Shown: piece after piece, positions 1 through 17,994 of the stretch
How positions within the stretch are numbered: position 1 is the stretch's first letter
Layout: each line of letters starts with the position of its first letter
Source: Anatilimnocola floriformis
GTDB lineage: Bacteria > Planctomycetota > Planctomycetia > Pirellulales > Pirellulaceae
Direction of reading: 5' to 3'
DNA: 64,000 nucleotides
Assembly: GCF_024256385.1 (NCBI RefSeq)
Contig: NZ_JAMLFW010000001.1
Span: 2,542,001-2,606,000, forward strand
Program-made: the position numbers and the translations under genes
The notes under the pieces: model-generated
Told to the model about the DNA's origin: nothing
The model's input: the letters and a program-made list of their open reading frames with translations, nothing else
The model's database searches: none

Positions 1-1
1 G

Positions 2-905: not shown

Positions 906-922
906 CATAGTTGGCAATCGAA

Positions 923-2092: not shown

Positions 2093-2138
2093 GGCATTGC
2101 TCCTTTCGGCGGCTTCGGCTGCAAAGACGATGCCGAAG

Positions 2139-2498
2139 TTAGGTTGAGATTAGGCGTAACCACAATCGTTGCTGTTCTTTCCAGCAAGATATTGCGGCGA
2201 GGGGTCGAAGTTGCCGCTCATTGATAGCGCCGGGCTTTGTGAGTATTTGTTCTTGGAGGTTTGGCGCAAGCGCCAACAGGTTCATGATCTGAGTGAGACG
2301 AGGCCTGCTCACGTGTCCCAGCTCCGCGATCTCCGCTTGGTCCCGGACCTTCCCCTCGCGTATTAACTCGTCGAAGTGAATCGCCAACGCCATCAGCTTG
2401 GCGATGCGGGGAACACGAACGACCGGCTTGGACTCCTGCGCAGGCGCAAGCTTCTTCTTCCCCTTCGCTACCCGTTTGAACTGCACTTTCACCTTCAT
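2139..2498 (-). CDS. Small HTH protein partnered with a serine recombinase
   Basis: A 119-residue basic protein begins with a Lys-rich stretch (KRVAKGKKK) and carries a helix-turn-helix like that of ParB at about residues 50-85 (DQAEIAELGHVSRPRLTQIM). Its ATG overlaps the TGA of the recombinase gene in an ATGA, so translation should be coupled. Small proteins of this type regularly follow large serine recombinases in accessory elements. A role in directing recombination or in regulation is an inference. The ending (ISCWKEQQRLWLRL) resembles family members I remember, so I take it as full length. Confidence 0.75.
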   Translation of the reverse strand: MKVKVQFKRVAKGKKKLAPAQESKPVVRVPRIAKLMALAIHFDELIREGKVRDQAEIAELGHVSRPRLTQIMNLLALAPNLQEQILTKPGAINERQLRPLAAISCWKEQQRLWLRLIST

Positions 2499-3997
2499 GC
2501 CATCGCCTCCTCGTTGATGCCAACGGACCGAAATGAAATCGCCAATGTGCCGTCACGCCCGTCGTGTGCGACCGTTTCGACCAAGAGCTCGATCACACGC
2601 ACTTGCTCGCGAGTGGATAGGGCGTGCCATAGGCGGCAAAAGTCAGCCAGACCCGCTCGCACCCGGGGTTCGTCGATTGTGGCCGCCGTGGCGCGCGACA
2701 GGGCGGTTTCTGTCGCTCGGATCGAGTCCTTGATCCCGGCTAGTTTCTCGGCGAGTGCTCCGTCACCGGGGGAACGACGGACCGCTTGCTCGACTGATAC
2801 CCGCTGGCGATTGAGTTTTTGGAGTTCGCCACCCAGACTGTCGACTTCGACGGTCTGTTGCGCACGGGCCTGGGCCAACGTCGCCGCCAGCAACTCCGGC
2901 GATTCCGCCAGCGCCTTCAGCTGCTCGACGATGAAGGCTTCGATCTCGCCAGCTGGTATAGACGGTGCCGCGCACGTGTCCCAGCCATCCCGCTGCGCTT
3001 TCGCACAAACGTAGTACCGGTACTGCTTCGGTCCTTTCTTCGTGTACACGTGGTGCATCGGCGAGTCGCAGCAACTGCAGCGGAGTAGGCCACGCAGCAG
3101 CGCGCCGTGGCGGTTTCGGTTCCCAGCACCGCCGTCTTGCTTACCCCGCGTCAGCGCCGCCTGCACTTTCAGGAACAGCACTTCGTCGACGATCCCTTTG
3201 TGCTCGCCGGGATGGACCTCGTCCTTGTACTTCACCTTGCCGATGTAAGCGGGGTTCGTCAGCAACTGCCACAATCGCCCTTTCGTGAACGGGAGGCCGC
3301 CGATCGTGCGCCCCTTCTTCGTGGTCCAGGACTTCGTGCGCCAGCCGCGCTCGTTCAATTGGCGAGCTACCTTCGTCATCGCTTGTTGCTCAGCGTACAG
3401 GCCGAAGATCTCACGGATCATTTCGACTTCGGCGGGATTCGGCACAAGCTTCGAGTTCTCGACATCGAATCCGAGTAGCGGCATTCCACCAACCCATTTC
3501 CCCTTCCGTCGCGCCGCAGCAATCTTGTCACGCGTCCGTTCCGAGATCATCTCGCGCTCGAACTGGGCGAAGGAGAGAAGCACGTTTAACACGAGTCGAC
3601 CCATCGAGGTTGCGGTGTTGAACTGCTGGGTGACGGAAACAAAGGCCACGTTGTGCTTGTCGAAAACTTCCATCATGCGGGCAAAGTCGAGCAAGCTGCG
3701 ACTCAACCGGTCGACTTTGTAAACGCACACGCAGTTAATCTTCCCTGATTCGATGTCTGCCATCAGCTTCTTAAGCGCGGGGCGGTCCATGTTGCCGCCA
3801 GTGAATCCGCCGTCGTCATATCGCTCGGGCGAGCAGACCCAGCCTTCGTGCTGCTGGCTCTTGATAAACGCTTCGCCACCTTCACGTTGGGCATCGAGCG
3901 TGTTGAACTCCTGTTCGAGCCCTTCCTCGGTGCTCTTGCGGGTGTAGATGCCGCAGATGATGGTCGGTGGTTTGGTTCTGGTTTGTACCTTCTTCAT
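2495..3997 (-). CDS. Large serine recombinase
   Basis: A 500-residue site-specific recombinase. The resolvase domain spans about residues 13-165, with the nucleophile in IYTRKST (Ser22), then YDDGGFTGGNMDRPAL, VYKVDRLSRSLLDF and the long E helix ending SERTRDKIAAAR. A recombinase DNA-binding domain follows at about 180-290, then a zinc ribbon with CSCC and two further cysteines (about 305-345), and a coiled-coil-rich C-terminus. This is the layout of phage and ICE integrases that act by double-strand breaks with a 5'-phosphoserine intermediate. It overlaps the DUF2924 gene upstream and the HTH gene downstream by four bases each. All catalytic motifs look intact, so it may still be active. The attachment sites are not visible to me. 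Confidence 0.95.
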   Translation of the reverse strand: MKKVQTRTKPPTIICGIYTRKSTEEGLEQEFNTLDAQREGGEAFIKSQQHEGWVCSPERYDDGGFTGGNMDRPALKKLMADIESGKINCVCVYKVDRLSRSLLDFARMMEVFDKHNVAFVSVTQQFNTATSMGRLVLNVLLSFAQFEREMISERTRDKIAAARRKGKWVGGMPLLGFDVENSKLVPNPAEVEMIREIFGLYAEQQAMTKVARQLNERGWRTKSWTTKKGRTIGGLPFTKGRLWQLLTNPAYIGKVKYKDEVHPGEHKGIVDEVLFLKVQAALTRGKQDGGAGNRNRHGALLRGLLRCSCCDSPMHHVYTKKGPKQYRYYVCAKAQRDGWDTCAAPSIPAGEIEAFIVEQLKALAESPELLAATLAQARAQQTVEVDSLGGELQKLNRQRVSVEQAVRRSPGDGALAEKLAGIKDSIRATETALSRATAATIDEPRVRAGLADFCRLWHALSTREQVRVIELLVETVAHDGRDGTLAISFRSVGINEEAMA

Positions 3998-4569
3998 TTC
4001 TTCGCTCCCTTACCCAGGCCAAAGAAGACGACGCCGTTCCAATGCTGCCCGGTTACGACCTTGGCGATTGCTGAGAGCGAGGTGTACTTCTGACTTTCAT
4101 ATTCGAATCCGTCGCCTAGCACCGTGACCAGCAACACCTTGTCCTTGTACTTCCGCGTGATGACCGATCCCGGTGGCGGGATACGGTTGTCGCCGTTCAG
4201 CTTCACGATCTTAGTCGTCGTGCCGGGTGACGGCTTCGATTGCTTCGGCGCCATGATCCGCAGGTCGGCTTCGTTGGCGAGTTCCTTCGCCCGAGCCAGC
4301 GCACGTTCCGACAAACCGCCGAATGCGTTCGCTTGGATCCGCCATGCGATTCTCTTCACCAACCAATCTTTGTGCCGGCTGTTTGTCGGTTCCCCGAACA
4401 CCTCGACGAACCGCTCTCTCAGCTGGCCGACCGTAAGCAGCGGTAGTGCCGCGAGCTCGGCTCGATTCCACGCACCATATAAGTAGTCTCCTTCTGAATT
4501 CAGGCCCGGCGGAACCTCTCCGACCGTTAACCGATGACACAGTGACGCTCTGCCGGGCACATCAATCAA
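3994..4569 (-). CDS. DUF2924 family protein
   Basis: A 191-residue protein. Residues about 45-85 (LTVGQLRERFVEVFGEPTNS, then KDWLVKRIAWRIQA) and the C-terminal SLSAIAKVVTGQHWNGVVFF are the hallmarks of DUF2924, a family usually found directly upstream of a large serine recombinase, as here. Its function is unknown; a helper or DNA-binding role in recombination is inferred from that constant linkage. The listed start is a TTG at 4567-4569 without a good ribosome site, and the true start may lie up to about 40 residues further in, because the first 35 residues are not typical. It overlaps the recombinase start by four bases. Confidence 0.8.
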   Translation of the reverse strand: MIDVPGRASLCHRLTVGEVPPGLNSEGDYLYGAWNRAELAALPLLTVGQLRERFVEVFGEPTNSRHKDWLVKRIAWRIQANAFGGLSERALARAKELANEADLRIMAPKQSKPSPGTTTKIVKLNGDNRIPPPGSVITRKYKDKVLLVTVLGDGFEYESQKYTSLSAIAKVVTGQHWNGVVFFGLGKGAKK

Positions 4570-4578
4570 GCGGTCCGG

Positions 4579-4707
4579 TCAGGATTCTTCCGGATTGTCG
4601 ATGAGATCGAGTTCGGGGAGGCGCAGGACGCCGCGGGCTAAGATGGCGGCGATGATTTGCAGACGCTGATCGGGCGTCAGTTCGTGGGGTAGGTCGAGGA
4701 AGAGCAT
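4579..4707 (-). CDS. 42-aa conserved protein at the head of the recombinase operon
   Basis: The minus strand has a GGAGG seven bases before an ATG (4705-4707) that opens a 42-codon frame ending in TGA at 4579-4581, ten bases before the DUF2924 start. The product begins MLFLDLPHELTPDQR, continues with an Ala/Ile/Leu-rich helix (IIAAILARGVLRL) and ends in an acidic tail. I recall similar short proteins containing LTPDQR-x-x-x-IAAILARG in planctomycete recombinase operons. The function is unknown. The strong ribosome site and tight spacing make it the likely first gene of a four-gene operon. Confidence 0.65.
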   Translation of the reverse strand: MLFLDLPHELTPDQRLQIIAAILARGVLRLPELDLIDNPEES

Positions 4708-4838
4708 GAGGCCTCCGTGTGAAAATCGCTTAACTCAGGAGGTTGCGATGCACCTCCGTTTACCCACTACCCGGATCGTCTTCGAATTGACGGAGGATTT
4801 TTCGGAATCTCACAGATAGGCGCAAATCCGCATTCTGA

Positions 4839-4866
4839 GTGACTCGCCAAATGTGTCTGCTATAAT
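4839..4866 (+). promoter_or_regulatory. Extended -10 promoter of the sigma/primase operon
   Basis: A perfect TATAAT at 4861-4866 is preceded by TGC, giving an extended -10 (TGCTATAAT). A weak -35 match GTGACT lies at 4839-4844 with 16-base spacing. Transcription would start near 4873, about 33 bases before the ATG at 4906, and a GGGGAGAGGG ribosome site follows. It reads away from the divergent recombinase operon. Confidence 0.6.
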
Positions 4867-4905
4867 CCGTGCAAGTAAGACGGATTCACTGGGGAGAGGG
4901 TTAGG

Positions 4906-5502
4906 ATGACCGTGCTGAATGATCTTTACGACACATCCCTGGCGGCTATCGATTCTGCTGACACCCTCTGCGACTTAGCTCGACCTTTCATTCAGATGAA
5001 GGCCCGGCGGCTGGTGGGCACCGCCGGTTTCAAGTGCAGCGACCAGCCTGATATCGAGCAGGAAGCGTACATCCGACTCATCGAGCGTTTCGAAAAAGCT
5101 CGCGATGTGGGCGAATTGCCTGTCCTCTTTTTCATCAAGCAGATTGTCGATCAGTCCATCGCCAATCAAGTGCGCGCCCGAAAATCGCAGTGCCGTAATC
5201 GCAGGACCTTGTCGATTCATTCGCCCAGTTCAGAGTTGGACGGTGCAGAACTTTCGCATTCGTTGCGTGACGATACGGTCCACGGCCAATCGCAGAATTG
5301 GTGGCACTGGCAGAAAACGATCGACATTAAGGACACGATCGCCAACCTGAGGCCCGAAGAACAGGAGTTGTGCGTACAGCTTGGCATCATTTCGATTGCC
5401 GAGATCGTTCGTAACGCAAAGTTGCCTCGCTCGACACTTCAGGACCGAGTAAGCCGTTTACGTTCCAAGATGCGGGAACATCAGCTGAATACAGGGGCCT
5501 GA
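4906..5502 (+). CDS. Sigma-70-like protein of a mobile element
   Basis: A 198-residue protein. Residues about 25-95 resemble sigma region 2 (DIEQEAYIRLIERFEKAR, then PVLFFIKQIVDQSIANQVRA). The C-terminal part (about 150-195) carries a region-4-like HTH (ISIAEIVRNAKLPRSTLQDR, then VSRLRSKMREH). The centre is Ser/His-rich and variable. It is first in a plus-strand operon with replication genes. Proteins of this kind commonly precede primase genes in planctomycete accessory elements. It may direct RNA polymerase to element promoters or act as a DNA-binding regulator, and I cannot tell which. Confidence 0.7.
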   Translation: MTVLNDLYDTSLAAIDSADTLCDLARPFIQMKARRLVGTAGFKCSDQPDIEQEAYIRLIERFEKARDVGELPVLFFIKQIVDQSIANQVRARKSQCRNRRTLSIHSPSSELDGAELSHSLRDDTVHGQSQNWWHWQKTIDIKDTIANLRPEEQELCVQLGIISIAEIVRNAKLPRSTLQDRVSRLRSKMREHQLNTGA

Positions 5503-5595
5503 CAGTTTTTCAGAAATTCTTCCGTCATCTTTTCGCCTGACCGGGTAGTGGAAACTTAGACAGAGTTTTCATTCACCATTTCAGCAGGGCGTTCG

Positions 5596-5886
5596 ATGAG
5601 CGGAAATGCGTTCCGGTATGATTTCGGCAATGATGTGCCGATGGAAGAGGTCCAGGCCTCAATTCTTCTCGCGGTTCTGGGCTGCGAGAGTTTGCACGGC
5701 GAAACGGGCGTGCATCTCAACGCGACATATTCGCTGGATGTAGCCGGCCGTACGTGCGTGGTCGATGTCAGCAATGACGTTGGCAGCGATCTGAATCGGC
5801 TTTTCGCGGGCTTCGTCCGGAGGGAATTCGGACGTGGGAAGTTCAGTGTGAAGCGGATCGAAGGACTTTCTGCGATCAAGAGGTGA
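5596..5886 (+). CDS. Conserved hypothetical protein of the element
   Basis: A 96-residue soluble protein lies between the sigma-like gene and the primase gene, with the primase ATG only three bases after its stop. It has a short N-terminal part (SGNAFRYDFGNDVPMEEVQ), a helix around LLAVLGCESLHGE and beta-rich text (TYSLDVAGRTCVVDVSNDVG). An AGGG precedes the ATG. I recognise no family. Its place suggests a role in replication or control of the element, but that is only inferred from position. Confidence 0.65.
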   Translation: MSGNAFRYDFGNDVPMEEVQASILLAVLGCESLHGETGVHLNATYSLDVAGRTCVVDVSNDVGSDLNRLFAGFVRREFGRGKFSVKRIEGLSAIKR

Positions 5887-5889
5887 GCC

Positions 5890-7330
5890 ATGTCACCTCT
5901 TGATGCAGCGACAGGCTACTTGCGCCGCGGCTACGCCGTAATTCCGGTCCCGTATCGCGGCAAGAATCCGGGCCTCGACGGTTGGCAACAATTGCGGATC
6001 ACGCTCGATACGGCCGACCAGCATTTCAATGGTGCACCGCAGAATATTGGTGCGTTACTCGGCGAACCGTCTGGCTGGATCATCGATGTCGATCTCGATC
6101 ATAAGCGGGCCGTCGAGCTGGCTGCAGACTTCTTGCCACCAACGCCGGCAGTGTTTGGCAGGGAGAGTAAGCTCCGTTCGCATTTTGTCTATCGGGTGAC
6201 CAGCCCGGTCGCTACCAAGAAATTTCGCAGCAAATCTGCGGGCATGATTGTCGAGCTTCGGTCACCTTCCAATTTCAGTTGAATCGCCGTCGTGGATCCA
6301 CAGCGCACCATCTGGTGTCGACGCTAAAGACATCTTGCCTTGCCGTTCAACGCTGCTGCATCTGCCCACGGGCATACATTACCCGGCGACGCCAAAGTTC
6401 TTTACGGTTAATGCACTCGAGTTCGATCCGGTTCCCAATGCGCCTCCGCCGGCAGCCTGGCACCAATTCCTTCACGAGTTGTTCGATGGTGACATTGAAT
6501 CGCTCGATCTGCTGCAGGAATGGTTTGGTTATTGTCTGACGGGTGATACGTCGCAGCAGAAAATGATGCTGATGGTCGGCCCGAAGCGGAGTGGTAAAGG
6601 CACGCTGGCGCGGGTTCTTCGGCAGCTTATCGGCGCGGGAAACGTCTGTGGGCCTACTACTTCGAGTCTCGCCGAGCAGTTCGGACTACAGCCGCTGGTC
6701 GGCAAGACTTTGGCCATCGTCAGTGACGCACGCTTTCACGGCGACAAGATAGCCACGGTGGCAGAACGGCTGCTGTGCATCAGCGGCGAGGATCCGATCT
6801 CGATTCCACGGAAGCATTTGACCAACGTGGAGATGAAGCTGCCGACAAGGTTCATGTTTCTTACGAATGAACTTCCGCGGTTCACGGATGCCAGTAACGC
6901 TCTGGTCGGTCGTTTCCTGATCTTACGGCTGACCCAGAGCTTCTTCGGCAAAGAAGATGTCGGGCTCACCGGTAAGTTGCTCGGGGAGCTTCCCGGCATT
7001 CTGAACTGGTCAATCGAAGGCTGGCACCGCCTGCACAGCCGTGGCTACTTCGTGTTGCCGCGCAGTGCCCAGGAACTCGTGCAGGAGATGGAGGACCTTT
7101 CGTCGCCAGTTTCAGCGTTTGTCCGCGAGGAATGTCTGCTTGGGCACGGCCGTCGAGAGACGATCGATTGCCTTTACATCGCCTGGAAGGACTGGTGCGA
7201 GGGCCAGGGACGCCAGCACATCGGGACGAAGCAGTCGTTTTGCAAAGATCTTACCGCTGCGTTCTCTGGAATCAAATTGCGGCGAGGAACCGATGATCGA
7301 CGCTTTTACGATGGGATCGTACTAAAATGA
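5890..7330 (+). pseudogene. Prim-Pol / D5-like helicase gene, broken by deletion and frame change
   Basis: The first frame (5890-6282) encodes the N-terminus of a bifunctional primase-polymerase (YAVIPVPYRGKNPGLDGWQQ, the acidic motif IIDVDLDH) and stops just after GMIVELRS, where the fold should continue. A second frame, readable from about 6280 to 7330, enters at SPSWI and DILPCRSTLLHLPTG. It contains a complete D5/P4-type helicase: Walker A in GPKRSGKGTLARV, Walker B-like LAIVSDARF, and the sensor FMFLTNELPRF. The two frames differ by one base and much of the Prim-Pol C-terminus and linker is missing. I infer an internal deletion near 6265-6285 that also shifted the frame. A shorter helicase could still be made from an internal start. 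The next gene starts in an ATGA overlap. Confidence 0.8.
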
Positions 7331-7521
7331 CCGCCAAACCAACAATTTGCGAAGCCTGCAAAAGATGGGGGCACGTGGTCAAAAAACAACCGCCGCGAAC
7401 CGCCGCGGAGGTTAGCACTGCAATCGCGCGCGCTCGGGCGCGCGCCTGCGCGGGAAGGAGTTTGGTTGCATGGGAGCCTCCGCGGCGGTTCGCGGAGGTT
7501 GGTCGTTTGTCGCCTACATAA
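7327..7521 (+). CDS. Doubtful short ORF covering a palindrome
   Basis: A 64-codon frame starts in an ATGA overlap with the helicase stop, which suggests coupled translation. The first 20 residues contain CEACKRWGHVVKK and look protein-like, but from about residue 22 the frame runs through a GC-rich nested palindrome and becomes Arg/Ala repeats. It may be a real short protein or an accident of the inverted repeat. I recognise no family. Confidence 0.25.
   Translation: MTAKPTICEACKRWGHVVKKQPPRTAAEVSTAIARARARACAGRSLVAWEPPRRFAEVGRLSPT
7393..7495. repeat. Nested palindrome: 19-bp outer arms, 8-bp inner arms
   Basis: Bases 7393-7411 and 7477-7495 are perfect 19-base reverse complements (CCGCGAACCGCCGCGGAGG and its complement) with 65 bases between them. 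Inside lies a second perfect palindrome, GCGCGCGC at 7426-7433 and 7438-7445 around a TCGG tetraloop. As RNA this could fold into a long stem topped by a short hairpin. It lies downstream of the helicase and just before the zinc-ribbon gene. It might be a replication or transfer site, a transcription attenuator or a MITE. No T run follows it. Confidence 0.8.
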
Positions 7522-7535
7522 GGGATTATGCTCAA

Positions 7536-7724
7536 ATGAATCTCAAACGAAAGAACACGAAGGTGGCTACTGATCGAGGCCTCAAGTGTCATCAATGCGA
7601 CAGTCGAAAATTCCGCGTTGTCTACACTCGTGCGGCTCGCGGGGGGAAGCTAGTCCGCCGGCGCCAGTGTCTGAAGTGCGGTGAACGATTGACAACCTGG
7701 GAGCGAGCCATCGGCGTGCAATAG
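7536..7724 (+). CDS. Stand-alone NrdR-like zinc-ribbon protein
   Basis: A 62-residue protein with CHQC (Cys18, Cys21) and CLKC (Cys45, Cys48) framed by RRRQCLKCGERLTTWER, the pattern of the zinc ribbon of the regulator NrdR. The ATP-cone domain that NrdR needs for nucleotide sensing is absent, so this is only the DNA-binding half. I chose the ATG at 7536 because the open frame upstream of it runs through the palindrome; an AGGG lies 12 bases before it. It is probably a small transcription regulator of the element. It stands 23 bases before the DruA-like gene. Confidence 0.7.
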   Translation: MNLKRKNTKVATDRGLKCHQCDSRKFRVVYTRAARGGKLVRRRQCLKCGERLTTWERAIGVQ

Positions 7725-7747
7725 GCTACGACGATTGTTCTGATTCT

Positions 7748-8860
7748 ATGGGCAAAATTACTCAAACTTGTCCGCTAATGGACTCACACGTCGCTCGCAC
7801 GACTTGTAGACGGGAAGTGATGGCGCTAGGATTCAATGAATTACAAGTGATGGATGGTGCTCACAGGGACAAGGACTGGTCCGCTCGCTTCCGCCCTCAT
7901 TCTTCGCAACCAAATGCCGTGGTCCATGATTCGCTTCAGCCTAAGAAGCTGACTAAAAGCAAGTCTCTCGCCAACCGCGTTCGCACTCAGGGCTTTCGCG
8001 CACGTGGACGTTTCTTCACGCCGAAGCAAATTGAAAATATTGTCGGAATAGTCAATCGCTACTCCGTTGAAGGTCGAACTCGAATCTCGGAGCGAGTGTG
8101 CCGTAATCTTCGATGGAGACAGCGTAACGGCCTGCTCAAGGACATGGCTTGTCGAGAAGTTCTGCGGAAGCTTGATTCGCTGGGCGTGATCTCTTTGCCG
8201 GCCCAGAAGTGGGGCGGCGCTAAATGGCTGCAATATTCGCTTGAGACCACTGGAGCAACCTCGAATGACGTAATCACTACTGTCACATTCAGCAAAATCA
8301 CAATCGTTCGAGTAGACTCAAAAGGGCACCCACTTGCTCCAACGTGGAATTCCCTCGTCGACGAGCACCACTATCTACACTCGTCACGAATTGTTGGGCG
8401 ACAACTCAAGTACATCGCAACATACGAAGGGGCTCCGATCGCATGCTTAGGATGGGGCGACTGTGCGTGGGCTCAAAGTTCGAGAGATTCGTGGATCGGA
8501 TGGAACGCAAGCCAGCGAATGCGAAATCGTCACTTAGTGATCAATAATTCCCGCTTTCTGATTCTTCCCTGGATAAAAGTTCCGAATCTCGCATCTTGGG
8601 TAATCGCAGCTTGCAGTAACCTCGCTGTTCGCGACTGGGCCGAACAGTACGCCATCACGCCAGCGCTCCTTGAGACCTTCGTCGACTCAGAACGTTTTCT
8701 GGGAACTTGTTATCGCGCCGCAAATTGGCAGCAAATTGGCGTGACTGCAGGCTATGCAAAGGTCGGTAACTCGCACCATAATTCTCAATCCCCGAAACTC
8801 GTCTTCGCATATCCGACGACACGCCGGTTCCGGGATCTCCTTAGGGGGCGACGAAAGTGA
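7748..8860 (+). CDS. DruA-like protein (DUF4338)
   Basis: A 370-residue protein. Residues about 90-150 (FTPKQIENIVGIVNRYSVEG, then SERVCRNLRWRQRNGLLKDM and ACREVLRKLDSLGVI) and 195-340 (LVDEHHYLHSSRIVGRQLKY, GWNASQRMRNRHLVINNSRF, LILPWIKVPNLASWV, CYRAANWQQIGVTAGYAK) are the full signature of DUF4338, the domain of DruA from the Druantia anti-phage system. The domain's biochemistry is not settled, to my knowledge, and copies also occur outside Druantia. The first 70 residues are not conserved. The ATG at 7820 has a better ribosome site (GGGAAGTG) and may be the true start. The next gene's GTG overlaps this stop in a GTGA. Druantia's large helicase DruE is not here, so this is not a standard Druantia locus. 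Confidence 0.85.
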   Translation: MGKITQTCPLMDSHVARTTCRREVMALGFNELQVMDGAHRDKDWSARFRPHSSQPNAVVHDSLQPKKLTKSKSLANRVRTQGFRARGRFFTPKQIENIVGIVNRYSVEGRTRISERVCRNLRWRQRNGLLKDMACREVLRKLDSLGVISLPAQKWGGAKWLQYSLETTGATSNDVITTVTFSKITIVRVDSKGHPLAPTWNSLVDEHHYLHSSRIVGRQLKYIATYEGAPIACLGWGDCAWAQSSRDSWIGWNASQRMRNRHLVINNSRFLILPWIKVPNLASWVIAACSNLAVRDWAEQYAITPALLETFVDSERFLGTCYRAANWQQIGVTAGYAKVGNSHHNSQSPKLVFAYPTTRRFRDLLRGRRK

Positions 8861-11658
8861 CTTCTGAGCAATTCTACGAAAGCCAAGTTGGGCAGAAGTT
8901 TGCTGGCTATACGTTGGATTGCATTCTAGATAACGACGAAGGATCGCACTGGTACGACTCACACGCGGACAATGGCGAGCGAGTGATCGTATATATATCT
9001 GCAGACAATGCAGCAAGGGATCGGCGTCGCGCGGGCCTCCACGGATTTCGAACAAGCATCGACGGTCGCCATCCCCTGAATGATTCACCAGTTTTCGCAT
9101 CAATCGGGGACCATCGCCGAATGATGCCGAAGCAGCTTCGAGAAACGCTACGGAATCCGGACACGCGACCACCAAACATCGCAGGATACGAAATTGAATG
9201 CGTGTTGGGCCACGGTTACAAGGGCATCACCTTTCGAGTTCGTCAAACGCACGGACCAAAAACTCCGTACGCGCTAAAATTGACAATTGCAGAAGAATAC
9301 ACTGATAAGACGTTTCTTCCTGAAGTCGACTCGATGGCTGAGTTAGCGCTCGCGGATCGAGACCATTTTCCGCAAATCCACCATTGCGATTACTTTGACT
9401 TTGTCTGCGATGGAGTACTTCATCGGCTCGTCTACTTTATAGAAGAATTTGTGAAAGGAAGCACACTTGAGGGCATTCTCAGAACCTCTCCGGAGTCCTT
9501 GAACGCGACGTTTCTGTATAACTACACCAGCGAGATGTTGTCAGCCCTTGCCACAATGCAAGCGTGCAAACTTATGCACGATGACTTGCACGCTGGAAAC
9601 GTCATCCTAATTGACCGCAGCCCAAGGCGCCCGATACTCATTGACTTCGGATCGGTAAAGGCGCGCGGTGTCACGAAAAAGTCGAGAGACGACATTAGGA
9701 ATTTGGCGTCGCACATTGCCGCAATTGCGAATGCGATTCAGCAATACACGCCAGTGCGTACATCCCAGGAGGACCGCATCCTTCTTGCGTGTGAATCACT
9801 TCTTGCGTTTATGTCGGACGATGATCCGATGCGGCGTCCAGACGATGCACACGACCTTGAAGAGAGATTCGCTAGTTTTTTTAGCCTCGGCAGTCTCCAG
9901 CAAGTGCTGAAACACCCTTTCGACTTTGGGAATGCCGAGGAGGTCATGGACAACAGCCTTCTCTACAGCCTATCGGCCAAGTCGTTTCCTTGGCGAGCTC
10001 AAATGGAGGCAAGCTCGCATTTGCTCGTAATCGGCCCCCGGGGTTCAGGCAAGACGACTGTGTTTAGGTCGATGTCATTCAAATGCTTATCGGACGCGAA
10101 GCTGTTTGAAGACGCAATTAGTCGGACATATGTCGGTCTCTACATTTCATGTAACAGGGAGTTTCGGCAACGCTTCAGCGCAATTGATCCAGAACTGTTG
10201 ACCCGTCGACAGGATGACATCCGGCACTATTTACACTTGGTCATTCTGAGAGAATTTGTAACAACACTGGGTGTGTGCAATATCAATGGAAACCTCCTCG
10301 AAGCCGAAACGTCCGCGCTCCGCGAGTTCATCAGATCGCATACTATGCTGCTTAATGCAGTCCCGCCCGACGCTTCTCCAGAAATCGGCGCGATCGAAGC
10401 AATAGTTACGAGAGAGGTCAGTCGATGCCGGATGGCGCTGTGGAATGACCAAGATATCGAGGGCTTAACTTCCCAAGGTTTTATAGCTGACTTAGCTGCA
10501 TTTGCCACAAAGAGTATCGGCGCTTTCCTCGGAAAGACTCTCTATTTGTTTGTCGATGACTACACGGAAGGAAAGGTTCCAAAGGAGGCGCAACGCGCTC
10601 TAAACCACATTCTCTTCGTGCCGAATTCTTCCTACAAGTGCAAGATTTCATCCGAAGTATTCGGAGTGGCGCTCGACGAAACTTACGGCAATTTTCTCAC
10701 TCAGGATCGTGATTATAAAGAATGGAATCTTGGCACAGAGTACTGTGTAAACCTTCCGACAATCGACCAAAAGTCGTTCCTGAAAGAAATCGTCGATAAT
10801 CGATTGCGGCTTTGTAACTATTCCGGCCGCGTCGACACAGTGATCGGCAATTCAAAATATGCTGGTGGAACGCTTGCGCGAACTTTGAAACGCGAAGCGG
10901 AAATCCGCAGGGAGAAGAAGCGAGCCAAGAAACCAGGACCGCAGGAACTCGTGGACCGGATGGTTCAGCGAGAAGTGGAAGATGAGGGCTTCGTGGCTGA
11001 ATATCACGGCTGGGATACCATCTGCGATCTCTGCACAGGCGACGTAAGCAACATTCTAGAGTTGCTTAACCGTATGTATGAAGAATGTGGTGTTAAGTCT
11101 GATACGGAAGGCCGTATCACACCACAGCAGCAAAGTTCAGTCATTGAGGGATATTCGCGACAGTACATCTCGAAGATAAAAGGAATCCCTGTATTTGGCG
11201 AGCGACTGTTCGCGATTGTTGACGCTTTTGGAAATATGGCGCGGCAGCTTCTTCAGGAACACCCAGGTATCGACCGCGGTCCAAATCGCAAAGATCCTTA
11301 TCAAGTGCTTCGGATCGAGCTGGATGAGGCGGGTAATGTCGATCCTGAAAGTGACAGCGGCAGGATCTGGAAATTATTGCAACGATATTGCATCTTTATC
11401 GACGCCGAAGAAGGTCGGTCGAGGAGAAATACTCTCTCAAGCAGAGTGCTCTTGCGGCGGATTTTTTGTCCTGTGTTTCGAATGTCGTTAACCAACAGTG
11501 AGAGCTGGACAATTTCTCGGCAAAAGTGGGAAGCCTTCTGCAACGACCCTAAGCGTCGTGCCGAGGCTTTCGTGGGCGGTGTTTTGGAAAGCACTTCAAC
11601 TTCAGATCGCCCACAGCAAACATTCGGCTTTTTGAGTCAAGGTCTAACCAATGACTGA
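8857..11658 (+). CDS. Protein kinase - P-loop ATPase fusion protein
   Basis: A 933-residue soluble protein. A Hanks-type kinase domain covers about residues 108-345: Gly-loop GHGYKG (118-123), Lys141 in YALKL, catalytic loop HDDLHAGN (241-248) and DFG (263-265). All catalytic residues are present. Residues 12-30 (GQKFAGYTLDCILDNDEGS) echo the kinase start (IAGYEIECVLGHG), perhaps a vestigial second lobe. A P-loop ATPase follows: Walker A GPRGSGKT (393-400) and Walker B TLYLFVDDYT (561-570), like the ORC/CDC6-related or STAND ATPases of defence loci. The last 300 residues are helical and unrecognised. Starting with GTG, it overlaps both neighbours (4 and 8 bases). It may sense infection and signal by phosphorylation, which is inferred. 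The stretch 10081-10140 has 28 G/C of 60, against 39 of 60 at 30601-30660, hinting at acquired DNA. Confidence 0.8.
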   Translation: MTSEQFYESQVGQKFAGYTLDCILDNDEGSHWYDSHADNGERVIVYISADNAARDRRRAGLHGFRTSIDGRHPLNDSPVFASIGDHRRMMPKQLRETLRNPDTRPPNIAGYEIECVLGHGYKGITFRVRQTHGPKTPYALKLTIAEEYTDKTFLPEVDSMAELALADRDHFPQIHHCDYFDFVCDGVLHRLVYFIEEFVKGSTLEGILRTSPESLNATFLYNYTSEMLSALATMQACKLMHDDLHAGNVILIDRSPRRPILIDFGSVKARGVTKKSRDDIRNLASHIAAIANAIQQYTPVRTSQEDRILLACESLLAFMSDDDPMRRPDDAHDLEERFASFFSLGSLQQVLKHPFDFGNAEEVMDNSLLYSLSAKSFPWRAQMEASSHLLVIGPRGSGKTTVFRSMSFKCLSDAKLFEDAISRTYVGLYISCNREFRQRFSAIDPELLTRRQDDIRHYLHLVILREFVTTLGVCNINGNLLEAETSALREFIRSHTMLLNAVPPDASPEIGAIEAIVTREVSRCRMALWNDQDIEGLTSQGFIADLAAFATKSIGAFLGKTLYLFVDDYTEGKVPKEAQRALNHILFVPNSSYKCKISSEVFGVALDETYGNFLTQDRDYKEWNLGTEYCVNLPTIDQKSFLKEIVDNRLRLCNYSGRVDTVIGNSKYAGGTLARTLKREAEIRREKKRAKKPGPQELVDRMVQREVEDEGFVAEYHGWDTICDLCTGDVSNILELLNRMYEECGVKSDTEGRITPQQQSSVIEGYSRQYISKIKGIPVFGERLFAIVDAFGNMARQLLQEHPGIDRGPNRKDPYQVLRIELDEAGNVDPESDSGRIWKLLQRYCIFIDAEEGRSRRNTLSSRVLLRRIFCPVFRMSLTNSESWTISRQKWEAFCNDPKRRAEAFVGGVLESTSTSDRPQQTFGFLSQGLTND

Positions 11659-12766
11659 CCAATTTGAGAAGTCGTTCCCTCAATTGATTCGAACACTGCC
11701 CCAGCCGCAGCGTCTCAACGAGTGTCCACCTAGCAAGGCAATTAGCTGTTTGGTTGCCATAGCTGGTTTTGAGCCGCGATGCTACGCTGCCACTGAGGTC
11801 CTGGCCAACGGAAATTGGCGTGCATCAAAGGGGGTGTGTGTCTGCTACTGCAACAGTAAGACGCGGTTGCCAAATGGTAAGTACAAGGACAGGCTGCTTG
11901 GCCATATGCGGACGGTGTTAGGTGGAAACGAACCATCCATTCTTGAGCATGACGATCACCTTTTAGAGAGAGATTTCGGAACTGCGATCTTGAATGAACT
12001 GCTTTCTCAAGGCATTGATGTCCGTGATCCTGCTACGCATATAGTTGTTGACATTACAGTTGGAAGTTCACGGCTGCTACTCGAAGGTTTGCACGCGTTA
12101 TTTTCAAGCTCCGCATCGGTGACTGTCGTTTACAGCGAAGCTTCCCAATATCGTCCTTATTTTAACGAGTATTTGGAGAATGCTGAAGAGCGTCGTTTGC
12201 ACACACTTGAACCCCCCGAATTCCTAACTCTTGGAGTTGAAAGTGTGGAGGTGTTAAGGCGAATACCAGGGCAGAATGCAGATGCGAGGCCTGCGTATCT
12301 GATTATGTTTCCGTCATTTGCTTACACGAGATCGAGCGCTGTACTTCAGGAGCTTGCCCCAAGTCGAGTGCAGTGGATTTTCGGTATTCCTCACCTTGTG
12401 GAGAACCGCTGGAGGCTTGATGCGCAGCGTGAGTACCACCATGGATTAATGGAGAGGGCCCATCGGCAGTGTTTGGTGAGTACTTTCGATTATCGGGAGA
12501 CACTAGAGGTGCTCGAGAACATATTTCGAAAGCGACGCTTAGACTACGGTGTTTTTGTCGCATCGCTCGGGAGCAAGATGCAAAAGGTCGGGCAGGTTCT
12601 GTTTCACTTGCTGAGGCCAGAGGCCGCCGCAGTGGTCTCCATTCCGAGAACTTGGGATCCCGAGCGATTCAGCAGCGATGAGTCGAAGGAGGTGTATTCT
12701 GTTAGCTTCGGACAGTGCTCCGCTATACGTGAATCGCTATGGAAAACAAGACAGCTGCGGCTTTGA
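11651..12766 (+). CDS. Unrecognised partner protein of the kinase-ATPase (possible effector)
   Basis: A 371-residue soluble protein that overlaps the kinase-ATPase gene by eight bases. I cannot assign a family. Alternating strands and helices suggest a Rossmann-like fold: AISCLVAIAGFEPRCYAA (about 30-47), then HIVVDITVGSSRLLLEGL, SASVTVVYSEAS, AYLIMFPSFAY, RVQWIFGIPHLVENRW and DYGVFVASLGSKMQKVGQ. The GFEPRC motif at 39-44 and the strand VVDITVGSSRLL remind me of uncharacterised proteins encoded beside NTPases in defence islands, but I cannot name a described family. There is no signal peptide or membrane helix. Tight coupling implies it works with the ATPase, as sensor or effector. The stop at 12764-12766 is followed by 273 bases without a gene. 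Confidence 0.7.
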   Translation: MTDQFEKSFPQLIRTLPQPQRLNECPPSKAISCLVAIAGFEPRCYAATEVLANGNWRASKGVCVCYCNSKTRLPNGKYKDRLLGHMRTVLGGNEPSILEHDDHLLERDFGTAILNELLSQGIDVRDPATHIVVDITVGSSRLLLEGLHALFSSSASVTVVYSEASQYRPYFNEYLENAEERRLHTLEPPEFLTLGVESVEVLRRIPGQNADARPAYLIMFPSFAYTRSSAVLQELAPSRVQWIFGIPHLVENRWRLDAQREYHHGLMERAHRQCLVSTFDYRETLEVLENIFRKRRLDYGVFVASLGSKMQKVGQVLFHLLRPEAAAVVSIPRTWDPERFSSDESKEVYSVSFGQCSAIRESLWKTRQLRL

Positions 12767-13039
12767 GCGAATTCGGTTTCAAGTTCTAGTTGCGTAATAA
12801 TTCGCTGCCATTTCTCGAATGTCACTTGCTACTCGAGTTCCGTCGCATACAGAATGGGTACTGCCGTCCATAGCGACTGCCGGTTTCTCGACACCGCTGC
12901 GGACACCAAGAATATAGCCGGTCCGGCGCGGCGAAATTGATAACAGCGTTTGGCCATGATTTTCCGAAGCGATGATCCGGCAATCGCGCTGCGTATCGAA
13001 ATCCTGCTAATGAATGCTTGAACGGGACCACACACGCAC

Positions 13040-13261
13040 ATGGAACCGAAACCCGAAGCGCCAGCCAAACAACCGACTTGTCAGATCATCGACTGGTACT
13101 CGGAAGGAGAAACTCGTGTCCTAAGCGTCGATGGCGTCGAAGTTCGAATTCGGTTTGTCGGGCGTAAGGGACGACGCGGGCGTATCCTGGTAGAGGCACC
13201 TGCGGGTGCATTGTTTGACGTGGTAGTTCAGGCACGCGATGCAGCAGAGCACCTAGCCTAG
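13040..13261 (+). CDS. CsrA-like small protein
   Basis: A 73-residue protein. Its core, TRVLSVDGVEVRIRFVGRKG followed by RRGRILVEAPAG, follows the beta-strand pattern of the carbon storage regulator CsrA: a short strand, a V/I-rich strand, then a strand ending in APxx. The usual MLVLTRK start is replaced by a longer, Pro/Lys-rich N-terminus. CsrA proteins bind GGA motifs in mRNA leaders, but whether this divergent version binds RNA is unknown. It stands alone, with no gene close on the same strand. The assignment is by pattern only. Confidence 0.5.
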   Translation: MEPKPEAPAKQPTCQIIDWYSEGETRVLSVDGVEVRIRFVGRKGRRGRILVEAPAGALFDVVVQARDAAEHLA

Positions 13262-13411
13262 CAAAATAGCTGCTCAGGGAGCGAACCGTCGTCGGCCATG
13301 AGCTGATTGCAGTACGGATAGAGGAATCCACCGCGCGATCGACTCTTCGGTAGGAATGACAATAGCTTCAGATAGGTAATACCATAAAAGGTCAGCGCAA
13401 TGGTCGACGAG

Positions 13412-13463
13412 TTCTCTGGTCCGTCAATCCACCGCCTGGGCTTTCCGGGCCGCACTCCGCATC
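13412..13463. repeat. 52-bp direct repeat, copy A
   Basis: This stretch matches 14383-14434 in the same orientation with seven mismatches in 52 bases; the last 19 bases (CCGGGCCGCACTCCGCATC) are identical. On the minus strand it begins with a start codon and reads MRSAARKAQAVD, then a TGA, while copy B stays open at that point. Copy A is therefore probably a decayed copy of a short gene start rather than a neutral repeat. Confidence 0.75.
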
Positions 13464-13547
13464 ATTAGCTCTCAGAAAACGGAAGTTCCCGTATCCAGTT
13501 GACCGGCACGGGCACGACCATCTTGCGGCTGTCGCTGCGTGAACGGA

Positions 13548-13790
13548 CTAAGAAATCACTGGTTCGTGCTGCCAGTTCTCAAAGACATCTTCCGAGTTCT
13601 TAGTTAAATGAACTTGGCGATCTACTCGCCCCACCCATCCGACCGGAATGTAGTGGTGTTCTTTGCTGGCTTCCGGATCGTTTTTAGTCAACTTGATCCT
13701 GTCTCCATCAACTTGATCGACTACGCCAACATGTTTTCCGCATGAGGCAATCACTTCCATGTGCTCGCGGATTTCCGATGTTTTCGCCAT
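13548..13790 (-). CDS. DUF2171 family protein
   Basis: An 80-residue protein with the classical DUF2171 text: IREHMEVIASCGKHVGVVDQ, then DGDRIKLTKNDPEASKEHHY, IPVGWVGRVDRQVHL and a final NWQ. Members are short stand-alone beta-barrel-like proteins related to PRC-barrel domains; their function is unknown and some seem linked to stress. A GGAG-like purine stretch precedes the ATG. It faces away from the monooxygenase gene downstream of its start. Its length is that of the family. Confidence 0.85.
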   Translation of the reverse strand: MAKTSEIREHMEVIASCGKHVGVVDQVDGDRIKLTKNDPEASKEHHYIPVGWVGRVDRQVHLTKNSEDVFENWQHEPVIS

Positions 13791-14019
13791 GACTGGTTCT
13801 CTTTCTCCGGTTGTTCTTAAATCGCGTCACGCACCGATAGTGCAGCTGTCGCGCCGTTTCGGGCACAACAACCGTCAGAGCAGCAGGACGGCGGCGATTT
13901 AAGGGGTGCGTCAGTGTGCTCGTGGTCATCGGCACCAGCGATGTGCGAGCCCAGTAGGAAAAGCAAACTGCTACGATGCACACTCTTAACACGAATCACC
14001 CAGAACTCAGGAACAGAAA

Positions 14020-14304
14020 ATGATCACCGTTGGCATGAACTACCACGTGCTCCCCGGCAAGCAATCGGACTTCGAGAATAAGTTCGCCGCCGTGCTCGAC
14101 GCGTTGCGAAAGGCAGAGGGGCACACGAACTCCACGCTGTGGAAAGATGTTAGCGACGACGCCTCTTACCTCATCACGAGCGAATGGTCGGATGAGCAGG
14201 CGTTCGTGACCTTCATCCATAGCGCGGCATTTAAGGAAGTGACGACCTGGGGAAAAGAACAGATTCTATCGGGCCGTCCGCAGCACAAGATCTACAAGCA
14301 CTAA
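14020..14304 (+). CDS. Antibiotic biosynthesis monooxygenase (ABM) family protein
   Basis: A 94-residue protein. It starts MITVGMNYHVLPGKQSDFEN and continues through GHTNSTLWKDVSDDASYLIT and SEWSDEQAFVTFIHSAAFKE, the ferredoxin-like ABM fold with its characteristic ExW pattern. ABM proteins act as dimers in small-molecule oxidation or heme degradation. The substrate here cannot be told, since no pathway gene is adjacent. CAGGAACAG before the ATG is a fair ribosome site. The length is typical of a single-domain member. Confidence 0.85.
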   Translation: MITVGMNYHVLPGKQSDFENKFAAVLDALRKAEGHTNSTLWKDVSDDASYLITSEWSDEQAFVTFIHSAAFKEVTTWGKEQILSGRPQHKIYKH

Positions 14305-14310
14305 CCCGAC

Positions 14311-14433
14311 CTACCGAGAGCTAAATTCATTTTCAGTTCGAGGGCGATTCGCTATAATCTCAACATCACAGCGATAGGCTAGTTTTCTGGTCAGCCTATC
14401 CGCCGCCTGGGCTACCCGGGCCGCACTCCGCAT
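14311..14433 (-). CDS. 40-aa small ORF beside the ParB fragment
   Basis: The minus strand has an ATG (14431-14433) opening a 40-codon frame, MRSAARVAQAADRLTRKLAY and so on, that ends at 14311. The same protein start appears in copy A of the direct repeat (13412-13463), where differences keep several residues (MRSAAR-x-AQA-x-D, TR-x-L) but include a stop. Conservation at the residue level argues for a true coding family. No function is known. It is divergent from the ParB-methylase fragment. Confidence 0.35.
   Translation of the reverse strand: MRSAARVAQAADRLTRKLAYRCDVEIIANRPRTENEFSSR
14330..14358 (+). promoter_or_regulatory. Candidate sigma-70 promoter before the ParB fragment
   Basis: TATAAT stands at 14353-14358 with TTTTCA (four of six -35 matches) 17 bases upstream at 14330-14335. 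It reads toward the ParB-like gene at 14474 and would give a leader of about 110 bases that contains repeat copy B. The -10 is perfect; the -35 is weak. Confidence 0.4.
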
Positions 14434-14434
14434 C
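14383..14434. repeat. 52-bp direct repeat, copy B
   Basis: This is the second copy of the 52-base sequence at 13412-13463, with seven differences. It encodes the start of the 40-aa minus-strand ORF and lies 40 bases upstream of the ParB-methylase fragment. The interval between the copies holds the DUF2171 and ABM genes, which may have been inserted between, or caught by duplication of, the same ancestral junction. Confidence 0.75.
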
Positions 14435-14473
14435 TCGGAGCAACCAGCACAGTAACTGTGCGGATGCTCCGTC

Positions 14474-15022
14474 ATGCAAATCGAAACCTGGCCCATCGAC
14501 CGGGTCAAACCGTACCCAAACAACCCACGCGTCAACAAAGACGCCGTCGCCGCAGTCGCTGTCTCGCTGAAGGAGTTCGGCTGGCGACAGCCCATCGTTG
14601 TCGATTCGGACGGTGTGATCATCGTCGGGCACACGCGCTGGAAGGCAGCGAAACAACTCGGGTTCGACCAGGTGCCGATTCACGTCGCCACTGATCTTAC
14701 GCCCGAGCAGATCAAGGCCTACCGCATCGCTGATAATCAGACAGCGACCATCGCCGAGTGGGACAAGCAACTGCTCCCGATCGAACTCGCCGATCTCAAG
14801 GCGATGAACTACGACCTCGGTCTGCTCGGGTTCGAACCAGACGAGTTACAGAAGTGGATGGGCGCCGAAGCAGCTGAAGGTCTCTGCGATCCGGACGAAG
14901 TGCCCGCGCCGCCTGACGCGGCGGTGACGCAGGCTGGTAATCTCTGGACCCTTGGCAATCATCGCCTCTTGTGTGGCGACAGTAGTCAGCCCGATCAGCT
15001 TGACCGGCTGATCAACGGTGCG
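14474..15022 (+). pseudogene. Truncated ParB-nuclease / DNA methylase
   Basis: The frame opens with a complete ParB-type nuclease domain: PIDRVKPYPNNPRVNKDAVA, SLKEFGWRQPIVVD, GHTRWKAAKQLG, then AYRIADNQTA. It runs into the start of an N4/N6-adenine or cytosine methylase, visible as NLWTLGNHRLLCGDSSQPDQ. Intact relatives continue with the catalytic DPPY motif and about 200 further residues. Here the match ends near 15020 and the frame then runs antisense through a transposase fragment to a stop at 15136. The methylase part is thus lost, and a short ParB-like protein with a foreign tail could still be made. Such genes belong to phages and integrative elements. Confidence 0.8.
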
Positions 15023-15023
15023 G

Positions 15024-15150
15024 AGATGCGTTGCGGCAACCTCGAACGTAGGATCTCGTTCTCGACCTTCAGGTACTTCACCTGGCGGGCCAGCTCTTTC
15101 TGCGTAGCGCCGGCGATCACGAGCCAGAGAGACTGAAAAACGTTGACCAT
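15024..15150 (-). pseudogene. N-terminal fragment of an IS transposase
   Basis: From an ATG at 15148-15150 the minus strand reads MVNVFQSLWLVIAGATQKEL, then ARQVKYLKVENEILRSRLPQ. This is the start of an integrase-core (IS3/IS481-like) transposase I know from planctomycetes, whose members continue LPxRIxxTPxER into a DDE domain. Here the homology stops at about 15025, where the ParB-methylase fragment begins, so both genes end at one junction. The element is dead; only about 42 of 300 or more residues remain. Confidence 0.65.
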
Positions 15151-15864
15151 CGTGTTAAACTAGGAAAGCCGCTGTGTATCCAAGAAATCTCATCTTTTTT
15201 GCACAGCGCAGGTGAGCGGTGGCCATCTAAAACATAGCTCGACTTCGAATCTCGATTCGATCTTTCCTAGCTTCTCTAGCTAGTTATCAAAATCCCTTCG
15301 CGCAAGGGGATGACCCGGCGGTTAACAGCAGAAGTTGCGTGCCAAAAAATCGGCCAAGAAGAGAGCGCGGTTAGTAGGAGAGTTCCGACCAGGGAGGATT
15401 TTTGCAAAAGTACAGTTGTCAGATGGGTCAGAATCTCAAGTAGGTTTTTGGGTTTATCCCACACCGACTATCAAGCCCCAAAATCGAAAAACTCCCAGCA
15501 CCACAGTTTCCTTGGTATTGCTGGCCGACGAATCTTTTTTTGCTATCCGATCTGGTAAGGCAGCCGTACGTGAGCAGTCGCGAGCGAGGCTCGTCAGGCC
15601 TATCTACTCTGAGATGATCTTCAGTGCAAAGCCTCCAGACCCGATGGATACGGCTTGCCCCTGAGCAACTCGCTCCCGCGCGGCCGCTCAGGAAGAAGTC
15701 GCTGCGGGATGGGAAAGAAGGATCGTTGTATGCTAACGTAATTGCTGATGCGGCTAGTCGTTGGACATACTGCTAACGGTGCCTCGGTGCCCTCGAACTT
15801 TGCACGTTCAAGGGGCAGATTCGGCTGCAGTAGAGTGATTGGATTCTCCTGAGGGTGACTCCGT
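15151..15864. other. Long stretch with one doubtful ORF
   Basis: These 714 bases hold no gene I am sure of. A frame from a TTG at 15335 to 15664 (109 aa) starts MRAKKSAKKRARLVGEFRPG and has a beta-rich centre (SESQVGFWVYPTPTI), so it could be a small protein or remnant, but its second half is low quality. The nonamer CTAGGAAAG at 15160-15168 has its reverse complement at 15262-15270. The stretch probably marks the edge between the element debris and the chromosome. Confidence 0.35.
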
Positions 15865-17421: not shown

Positions 17422-17518
17422 CAACAGTTTCCTAGCGTCAACTTCGAGTGGCCGCGTGATCCCCTGAGAAAGCGGTCGTTACTCTGGTTCGCGAATTCGA
17501 AAGCACGGCAAACCGACG

Positions 17519-17863: not shown

Positions 17864-17994
17864 GCCTGTCCTTGTCAATTCCGAGACGGCCGAATACAAA
17901 ATAACGAAATACAATTCGTGAATCATAGTGCACAATCCGTGTAATCTCAATCCGTTGCCGCCAGCACTCGATCCCGGTTGACAGTCGAAACATC

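What the first reader, a model, noticed from the sequence alone, without database searches (positions are those of the whole stretch)
7748..12766. Candidate new defence cassette: DruA-like protein, kinase-ATPase fusion and an unknown third protein
Three genes overlap by 4 and 8 bases and must be one translational unit. They code for a DUF4338/DruA-like protein, a 933-aa protein with an intact Hanks kinase plus a P-loop ATPase, and a 371-aa protein of unknown family. They lie directly behind replication genes of an integrative element, the usual place for cargo. Druantia is defined by DruA with DruE-type helicases, which are absent here, so this would be a different use of DruA. Sequence shows the motifs and overlaps; the defence role is inference.
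Basis: partly seen in the sequence, partly recalled or inferred. Interest (0 to 1): 0.88.

Follow-up and report, generated by a model that had tools for sequence, protein, structure and literature searches.

The report
Kinase-ATPase-CARF defence module with DruA
A planctomycete element carries a rare kinase-ATPase-sensor gene set whose relatives often carry a DNA-methylating enzyme, but here that place is taken by DruA, which is modelled with the fold of a phage DNA-modifying enzyme; this makes a testable guess at what DruA does.

Summary
The three overlapping genes are real. The 'unknown' third protein is a tandem-CARF protein (CARF6). Kinase-ATPase plus CARF6 is a known, rare family: its fused form (Zn ribbon, kinase, AAA+, CARF) was described in 2014 (PMC4012209, passage seen). 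I found 25 other loci of this branch in many phyla; CARF6 is adjacent or fused in 23, and in the other two the held sequence ends first. DruA is in none of the 25. Directly upstream of the kinase, 14 of 25 have a DNA methyltransferase (one only a fragment), 5 a thymidine-phosphorylase-like gene, 6 none or unreadable; the window has DruA there. The window's kinase-ATPase groups inside the methyltransferase-bearing rows (98/97; exclusion rejected, p-AU 0.011), on a long branch. DruA is modelled as a GNAT acyltransferase; phage Mu Mom is the third PDB hit. Its nearest relatives are genes of IS66- and Tn5-type transposons, not Druantia. Best reading: a transposon-lineage, Mom-like DNA modifier replaced the methyltransferase of a CARF6-kinase-ATPase system. 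The DruA swap is a single case; defence and DNA modification are untested.

The parts
7748..8860 (+). DruA-like protein, 370 aa (PF14236); GNAT-fold domain about residues 180-360, wHTH-like helices before it (by look at the model)
   Evidence: start codon uncertain
8216..8764 (+). DruA Pfam domain (residues 157-339)
8857..8860 (+). 4-base stop/start overlap DruA / kinase-ATPase (GTG start; AGGGGG upstream)
8857..11658 (+). protein kinase + ORC-CDC6-like AAA+ ATPase, 933 aa
9121..9123 (+). alternative ATG start near the start of the relatives
9277..9279 (+). kinase Lys141
   Evidence: invariant
9577..9600 (+). kinase catalytic loop HDDLHAGN (residues 241-248)
10033..10056 (+). Walker A GPRGSGKT (residues 393-400)
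10555..10560 (+). Walker B DD (residues 567-568)
11651..11658 (+). 8-base overlap kinase-ATPase / CARF6
11651..12766 (+). CARF6 protein, 371 aa, two Rossmann/CARF-like halves
12563..12583 (+). CARF6 motif SLGSKMQ (family consensus APTGSKMQ)
2495..3997 (-). serine recombinase of the host element (context)
6248..7330 (+). DUF5906/D5-like helicase of the host element (context)

Best explanation
It is a member, in split form, of the CARF6 / protein kinase / ORC-CDC6-like ATPase family (supported by sequence, structure model and gene neighbourhood), in which the upstream DNA-methyltransferase position has been taken over by a transposon-lineage DruA (supported for position and phylogeny, n = 1). 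Proposed mechanism (inferred): DruA is a Mom-like GNAT that puts an acyl-type mark on DNA bases and so plays the part that the methyltransferase plays in the relatives (self-marking, or marking that the ATPase reads). The ORC-like ATPase watches DNA. When it meets unmarked or invading DNA, or when the CARF6 protein binds a nucleotide-type ligand, the kinase phosphorylates host or complex partners and stops phage growth or the cell. Shown: gene order, intact catalytic motifs, CARF-like and GNAT folds in models, DruA in the slot that relatives fill with a methyltransferase. Inferred: DNA binding by the ATPase, DNA acylation, self-marking, ligand, kinase target, defence.
For: CARF6: PADLOC E 2e-12; AF2 model pLDDT 84.5, Foldseek Csm6 9w3u E 6.5e-6 and the type III CRISPR cOA-activated DNA nuclease 6sce E 7.4e-6. 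Kinase-ATPase: PADLOC CARF6--CARF_STK_AAA E 5e-26. In 25 further loci the gene directly upstream is a DNA methyltransferase of one family in 14 (L056 only a fragment there), a thymidine-phosphorylase-like gene in 5, none or unreadable in 6; membership checked by single-sequence phmmer from L050 and L057, Pfam N6_N4_Mtase in the six scanned, SPPY in 14 of 14 full or near-full copies and FxGxG in 13 of 14, L052 being cut at its start. Window kinase-ATPase is sister to methyltransferase-bearing L049 + L263 (98/97); holding the 13 methyltransferase rows together without the window is rejected, p-AU 0.011 (23 rows; the group was fixed after one search was seen); the CARF tree puts it at the same place, 85/82. 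DruA: GNAT fold, phage Mu Mom (8bv8) third of the PDB hits, E 1.4e-5; 16 of 22 members of the DruA alignment match PHROG 1384 'Mom-like DNA modification protein'. No match to my methyltransferase profiles among 330 ORFs of the whole window.
Against: DruA with this module is seen once. Of 150 loci fetched mostly around other DruA relatives, none has the module beside DruA within the sequence held (often only 1.5 kb each side); hits were only L080, the window itself, and L131, a contig whose Druantia-group DruA lies about 11 kb off. The window's branches are long (1.5-2.3), and without L049 and L263 the window falls at the base of the methyltransferase side rather than inside it. DruA does not find Mom by sequence in PDB, the window protein itself matches PHROG 1384 only at E 0.0095, and other GNATs score as well as Mom. 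In the CARF search, potassium-chloride transporter chains also score among the top hits. The ligand source is unknown: one Cas10 palm-domain family gives 24.1 bits in the genome, cut-off 27; other messenger synthases were not searched. Defence is not tested.
Confidence: 0.42

Rival explanations
1. DruA is a hitch-hiker: a leftover or passenger of an IS66-type transposon that landed in front of a kinase-ATPase-CARF6 pair and lost its transposase; the pair works alone.
For: Nearest relatives of this DruA are transposon genes, beside IS66 TnpC or joined to Tn5-type transposases; tree places it in the IS66-type group (87/89) and apart from Druantia DruA (100/100). Three loci have no partner gene in that slot: L008, L055, L059.
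Against: No TnpC or Tn5-type match in window 1-20000; DruA's frame and the residues invariant in its family are intact; the GTG start of the kinase overlaps the DruA stop, with AGGGGG before it; it stands where many relatives keep a DNA-acting enzyme.
Confidence: 0.3
2. DruA is a targeting or effector part that acts on invading DNA (as DruA may in Druantia), not a self-marking enzyme; kinase and CARF6 gate it.
For: Genes annotated as Druantia DruA stand in loci with a DEAD/DEAH helicase; viral contigs carry many DruA-domain proteins (80 loci kept of 120 that matched), so the domain serves both sides.
Against: The commonest slot-mate is a methyltransferase, i.e. a modification enzyme; the Druantia DruA is a distant branch.
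Confidence: 0.15
3. The kinase-ATPase-CARF6 module is a stress or cell-cycle regulator of the element, not anti-phage defence.
For: No direct defence test exists; ThyX or thymidine-phosphorylase-like partners point to nucleotide metabolism.
Against: Several loci have restriction and modification genes nearby (L007 restriction endonuclease, L008 DNA cytosine methyltransferase + NaeI, L051 ResIII-type helicase, L056 GmrSD, L059 Mrr); some loci lie on plasmids or viral contigs (L007, L008, L218-L220).
Confidence: 0.1

Closest known systems
CARF6 'CARF_STK_AAA' family (PADLOC model PDLC01925; described in Makarova et al. 2014, PMC4012209, as Zn ribbon-kinase-AAA+-CARF-wHTH)
   Same: Kinase, AAA+ with Arg in the P-loop, CARF, in this order; L058 matches the model with 1636 bits, window kinase-ATPase 88.6 bits
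   Different: Window has two genes, no Zn ribbon seen, is divergent (24-29% identity to relatives), and has DruA in front
Druantia (DruA + DruE helicase; definition recalled)
   Same: A DruA-domain gene opens the operon
   Different: No helicase of that kind beside it; DruA is in another branch (100/100)
Mom DNA modification (phage Mu) and PHROG 1384
   Same: GNAT fold; Mom third among PDB hits
   Different: Extra N-terminal wHTH-like part; activity unknown
IS66- and Tn5-type transposon DruA genes
   Same: Closest relatives by sequence: 33-39% identity, up to 40% over most of the domain
   Different: Transposase absent; kinase-ATPase-CARF6 instead
PF24389 ATPase + CARF6-like gene with PRTase-CE, HD-CE or calcineurin-like partners
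   Same: Same ATPase family, CARF6-like gene downstream, methyltransferase near, sometimes ThyX
   Different: Another enzyme in place of the kinase
MADS / BREX (kinase + ATPase + methyltransferase)
   Same: Same kinds of parts (recalled); weak kinase matches to MAD6 and PglW
   Different: Scores far below the NCBIfam cut-offs (28.7 of 460 bits; 10.9 of 990 bits)

Membership tests
CARF6 / STK / AAA family | CARF6-type CARF protein or domain | tested here: met
   (E 2e-12)
CARF6 / STK / AAA family | protein kinase with intact catalytic residues | tested here: met
CARF6 / STK / AAA family | AAA+ ATPase with Arg in the P-loop (GxRGxGKT) | tested here: met
   in 26 of 26 rows, window included (kinase loop in 25 of 26; L054 lacks the kinase part)
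CARF6 / STK / AAA family | fusion into one protein with Zn ribbon | tested here: not met
   window is split; split forms also in L007, L050-L053, L055, L056, L219, L220, L264-L267, so fusion does not define the kin group
Druantia | DruA-domain protein | tested here: met
Druantia | DruE-type helicase in the operon | tested here: not met
   no helicase besides the D5-like replication protein among the 13 ORFs scanned at 1565-15136
Druantia | DruA groups with Druantia DruA | tested here: not met
   (4 Druantia-group rows)
IS66-type transposon | TnpC transposase next to DruA | tested here: not met
   no match in window 1-20000
Mom-type DNA modification enzymes | GNAT fold related to Mom | tested here: inconclusive
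   fold yes; specific kinship to Mom over other GNATs not shown; no sequence match in PDB
Mom-type DNA modification enzymes | modifies DNA bases | not testable with these tools
   needs experiment

The most novel reading that the evidence does not exclude
DruA proteins are Mom-like DNA acyltransferases that transposons, phages and defence systems share; here one has replaced the DNA methyltransferase of a CARF6-kinase-ATPase immune system, giving a defence system that tells self from non-self by a hypermodified base instead of a methyl group.
Probability: 0.25. Interest if true: 0.85.

Novelty: new variant of a known kind. Interest (0 to 1): 0.58.

Why it matters
I know of no established activity for DruA (recalled; the paper passages and listings I saw did not give one). 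Its modelled GNAT fold, its repeated place beside transposases, and its place in a methyltransferase slot together suggest one: DNA base modification. That can be checked by mass spectrometry of DNA. It also shows that kinase-ATPase-CARF6 sets come with exchangeable partners, often a DNA-modifying enzyme.

Tried and rejected
Trio as a conserved cassette: rejected, 0 of 25 relatives have DruA beside the kinase, and of 150 loci fetched mostly around other DruA relatives only the window itself and one contig with a Druantia-group DruA about 11 kb away carry the module (flanks often only 1.5 kb). 'Druantia variant': rejected (no DruE). Third protein as novel family: rejected. Type III CRISPR link: no Cas10 palm domain over cut-off (one family searched). 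Phage or plasmid copies: P0001 and P0003 have no match in the phage collection (P0002 was not searched there); no DNA match in plasmids; viral scans with P0002, P0003 and alignment A7 gave none, alignment A6 gave three relatives. Attachment sites: no convincing direct repeat pair around the element in 1-15000. RNA families: none at gathering score in 1-16000. Promoter and terminator scans: near chance level.

Rows dropped before counts: of the 16 loci, L061, L062 and L064 (no kinase-type protein), the loci of G1079 and G1007 (L268, L269; ATPase-CARF6 without a strong kinase-ATPase score). L054 is kept among the 25 although its ORF lacks the kinase part. (Pseudomonadota) rang in 165 of 349 genomes, nearly all short kinase matches, with two candidates scored per genome; only G295 (= L050) and G593 (= L251) were taken as real. 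One search left out L007, L013 and L054; its two tests are the same split of the rows and count once (p-AU 0.011 and 0.008). In one search two rows (L219, L266) were cut in the wrong frame; one search repeats that tree with correct frames and replaces it. The profiles were built from some of the loci they then marked, so one search checks these by single-sequence phmmer.

Papers: Makarova 2020 (gkaa635), JB.00365-20 and gkv1267 are not held; what I say of the 2020 classification is only the PADLOC label. Seen as passages: PMC4012209, PMC12458937, PMC12839542, PMC7824862. All else as search listings. No paper on a DruA-kinase-CARF set, or on DruA with IS66, came up in those searches; most subscription papers are not in the library.

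Full report
Observation. The three genes are present as described: 7748-8860, 8857-11658 and 11651-12766, overlapping by 4 and 8 bases. The 2-kb windows at 8-14 kb have G+C 0.495-0.524; the other windows have 0.537-0.613. They follow a serine recombinase with DUF2924 (2495-4569), a Prim-Pol ORF and a DUF5906/D5-like helicase ORF. An ABM-domain gene begins at 14020.

What the proteins are. The first is DruA (PF14236, 112.6 bits). The second is a protein kinase followed by the PF24389 ORC-CDC6-like ATPase. Its AlphaFold2 model has two Rossmann-like halves (pLDDT 84.5), and Foldseek returns Csm6, the type III CRISPR cOA-activated DNA nuclease 6sce, Cam1 and other CARF proteins, with some potassium-chloride transporter chains among them. 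The second protein matches the PADLOC model CARF6--CARF_STK_AAA (E 5e-26). Makarova et al. 2014 already describe proteins with Zn ribbon, kinase, AAA+ with Arg in the P-loop, CARF and wHTH (PMC4012209, passage read).

Co-conservation. This gave 25 loci besides the window: L007, L008, L013, L049-L060, L063, L218-L220, L251, L263-L267. L054 lacks the kinase part in its ORF. CARF6 is fused or adjacent in 23 of the 25; in L060 and L218 the held sequence ends just after or inside the kinase-ATPase ORF. In L054 CARF6 is in two pieces with an ORF on the other strand between them.

The slot upstream of the kinase. In 13 of 25 the gene directly upstream (from a 68-base overlap to 44 bases apart) is a DNA methyltransferase of one family: L007, L049, L050, L051, L052, L053, L219, L220, L263, L264, L265, L266, L267. 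In a 14th, L056, an 87-aa fragment of it lies there (phmmer E 4e-13) and a full copy further upstream. In 5 (L057, L058, L060, L063, L251) it is a thymidine-phosphorylase-like gene. In 6 there is none or it cannot be read (L008, L055, L059 none; L013 and L218 at or near contig ends; L054 next to an oppositely oriented ORF). A single-sequence search from the L050 methyltransferase finds each of the 13 other full or near-full copies at E 7e-83 or better. Pfam calls N6_N4_Mtase in the six scanned (L050, L053, L056, L220, L264, L266). SPPY is in 14 of 14 and FxGxG in 13 of 14, L052 being cut at its start. The phosphorylase-like call rests on NCBIfam for L057 (E 1e-27) and on phmmer from L057 to the other four (E 9e-55 or better); Pfam gave at most weak matches. 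In the window, DruA stands there, and none of 330 window ORFs matches the methyltransferase, phosphorylase or ThyX profiles.

Phylogeny. A kinase-ATPase tree of 26 rows puts the window with L049 and L263, both methyltransferase-bearing, at 98/97. Forcing the 13 methyltransferase rows together without the window costs 13.5 log units, p-AU 0.011 (23 rows; the second run in that call is the same split and gives 0.008; the split was chosen). The corrected CARF tree (22 rows) gives the same sister group at 85/82. The window's branch is long; without L049 and L263 it falls at the base of the methyltransferase side. Roots are midpoints. Replacement of a methyltransferase by DruA is therefore the simplest history, but its nesting rests on those two rows.

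DruA. Twenty-nine of 294 genomes of the phylum, the window's included, have a match. Of 32 distinct DruA places outside the window (duplicate loci removed by hand; L133 and L134 are two places on one contig), 23 have a transposase directly beside DruA or fused to it: IS66 TnpC (e.g. L081, L086, L088, L092, L094, L096, L133; L084 weak), Tn5-type (e.g. L085, L089, L093, L100, L101) or another DDE transposase upstream (L091, L109); two have a hit at a distance or on the other strand (L129, L130); seven gave no hit with these queries (L082, L097, L098, L099, L103, L115, L135). In a 34-row tree the window DruA falls in the IS66-type group (87/89), next to L099 (83/92), a DruA in a long frame whose other part I did not identify; the four Druantia-group DruA are apart (100/100). 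The AlphaFold2 model (mean pLDDT 73.7; first 66 residues unreliable) is a GNAT fold. Foldseek lists human Naa60, a tRNA acetyltransferase and phage Mu Mom as the first three entries. Sixteen of 22 alignment members, all but the window from viral contigs, match PHROG 1384 'Mom-like DNA modification protein'; the window protein itself does so only at E 0.0095. That Mom transfers an acyl group to adenine N6 is from PMC7824862 (passage).

Wider class. PF24389 ATPases with CARF6-like genes also occur with PRTase-CE (L045; L047 in this same genome), HD-CE (L046, L269) or a calcineurin-associated protein (L044; L061 by phmmer, E 2e-57). A methyltransferase gene stands beside them in these six loci (Pfam for L044, L045, L046; by profile or phmmer for L047, L061, L269). 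ThyX stands near in L046 and L047, and in the kinase-type loci L007 and L266. For L061 and L269 the ATPase call rests on my own weak profile scores and, for L061, on phmmer from L044; the CARF-like scores of L044, L047 and L061 are weak.

Mechanism. I propose that the ATPase reads the state of DNA, the methyltransferase (in relatives) or DruA (here) writes it, CARF6 adds a nucleotide-type signal and the kinase carries out the response. Only the parts list, the motifs, the folds of models and the slot occupancy are supported here; ligand, target, modification and defence are inference. The main rival is that DruA is a transposon passenger. The 4-base overlap argues against it, but only if the GTG at 8857 is the true start; relatives start about where the ATG at 9121 lies.

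Verdict. A new variant of a known family, with one unusual and testable substitution.

Noticed in passing
G000:C1:3867000-3884000 (L047 5105-11272): The same genome holds a second locus of the PF24389-CARF6 type: C5-like methyltransferase, PRTase-CE, PF24389 ATPase, weak CARF6-like gene, and ThyX on the other strand.
   Followed up: partly
L007 11905-12828; L046 4044-4976; L047 10370-11272; L266 5303-6304; L057 5893-7077 and others: ThyX or thymidine-phosphorylase-like genes recur beside PF24389/CARF6 loci, which hints at a role of thymidine nucleotides.
   Followed up: partly
window 5890-6282 and 6248-7330: Prim-Pol and D5-like helicase parts lie in two overlapping frames, either two genes or a decayed primase; described only.
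   Followed up: no
window 7387-7501: A 25-base inverted repeat (96%) with 65 bases between, right after the helicase gene and before the cargo; could be a terminator or a replication site.
   Followed up: no
G298 (13 matches); L085, L093, L126, L128: DruA domains occur fused to Tn5-type transposases (L118, the L085 place, and L128 by Pfam); G298 has 13 DruA matches, 12 of them in frames of 615-1169 aa.
   Followed up: partly
L133-L212 (IMG/VR): 80 viral-contig loci (of 120 matching) carry DruA-domain proteins; 16 of 22 rows aligned match PHROG 1384: a large viral DruA/Mom-like group.
   Followed up: partly
window kinase residues 15-45 (about 8899-8991): The extra N-terminus starts like the kinase N-lobe (AGYTLDCIL vs AGYEIECVL; 7 of 2000 shuffles score as high), perhaps a decayed duplicate lobe.
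   Followed up: partly
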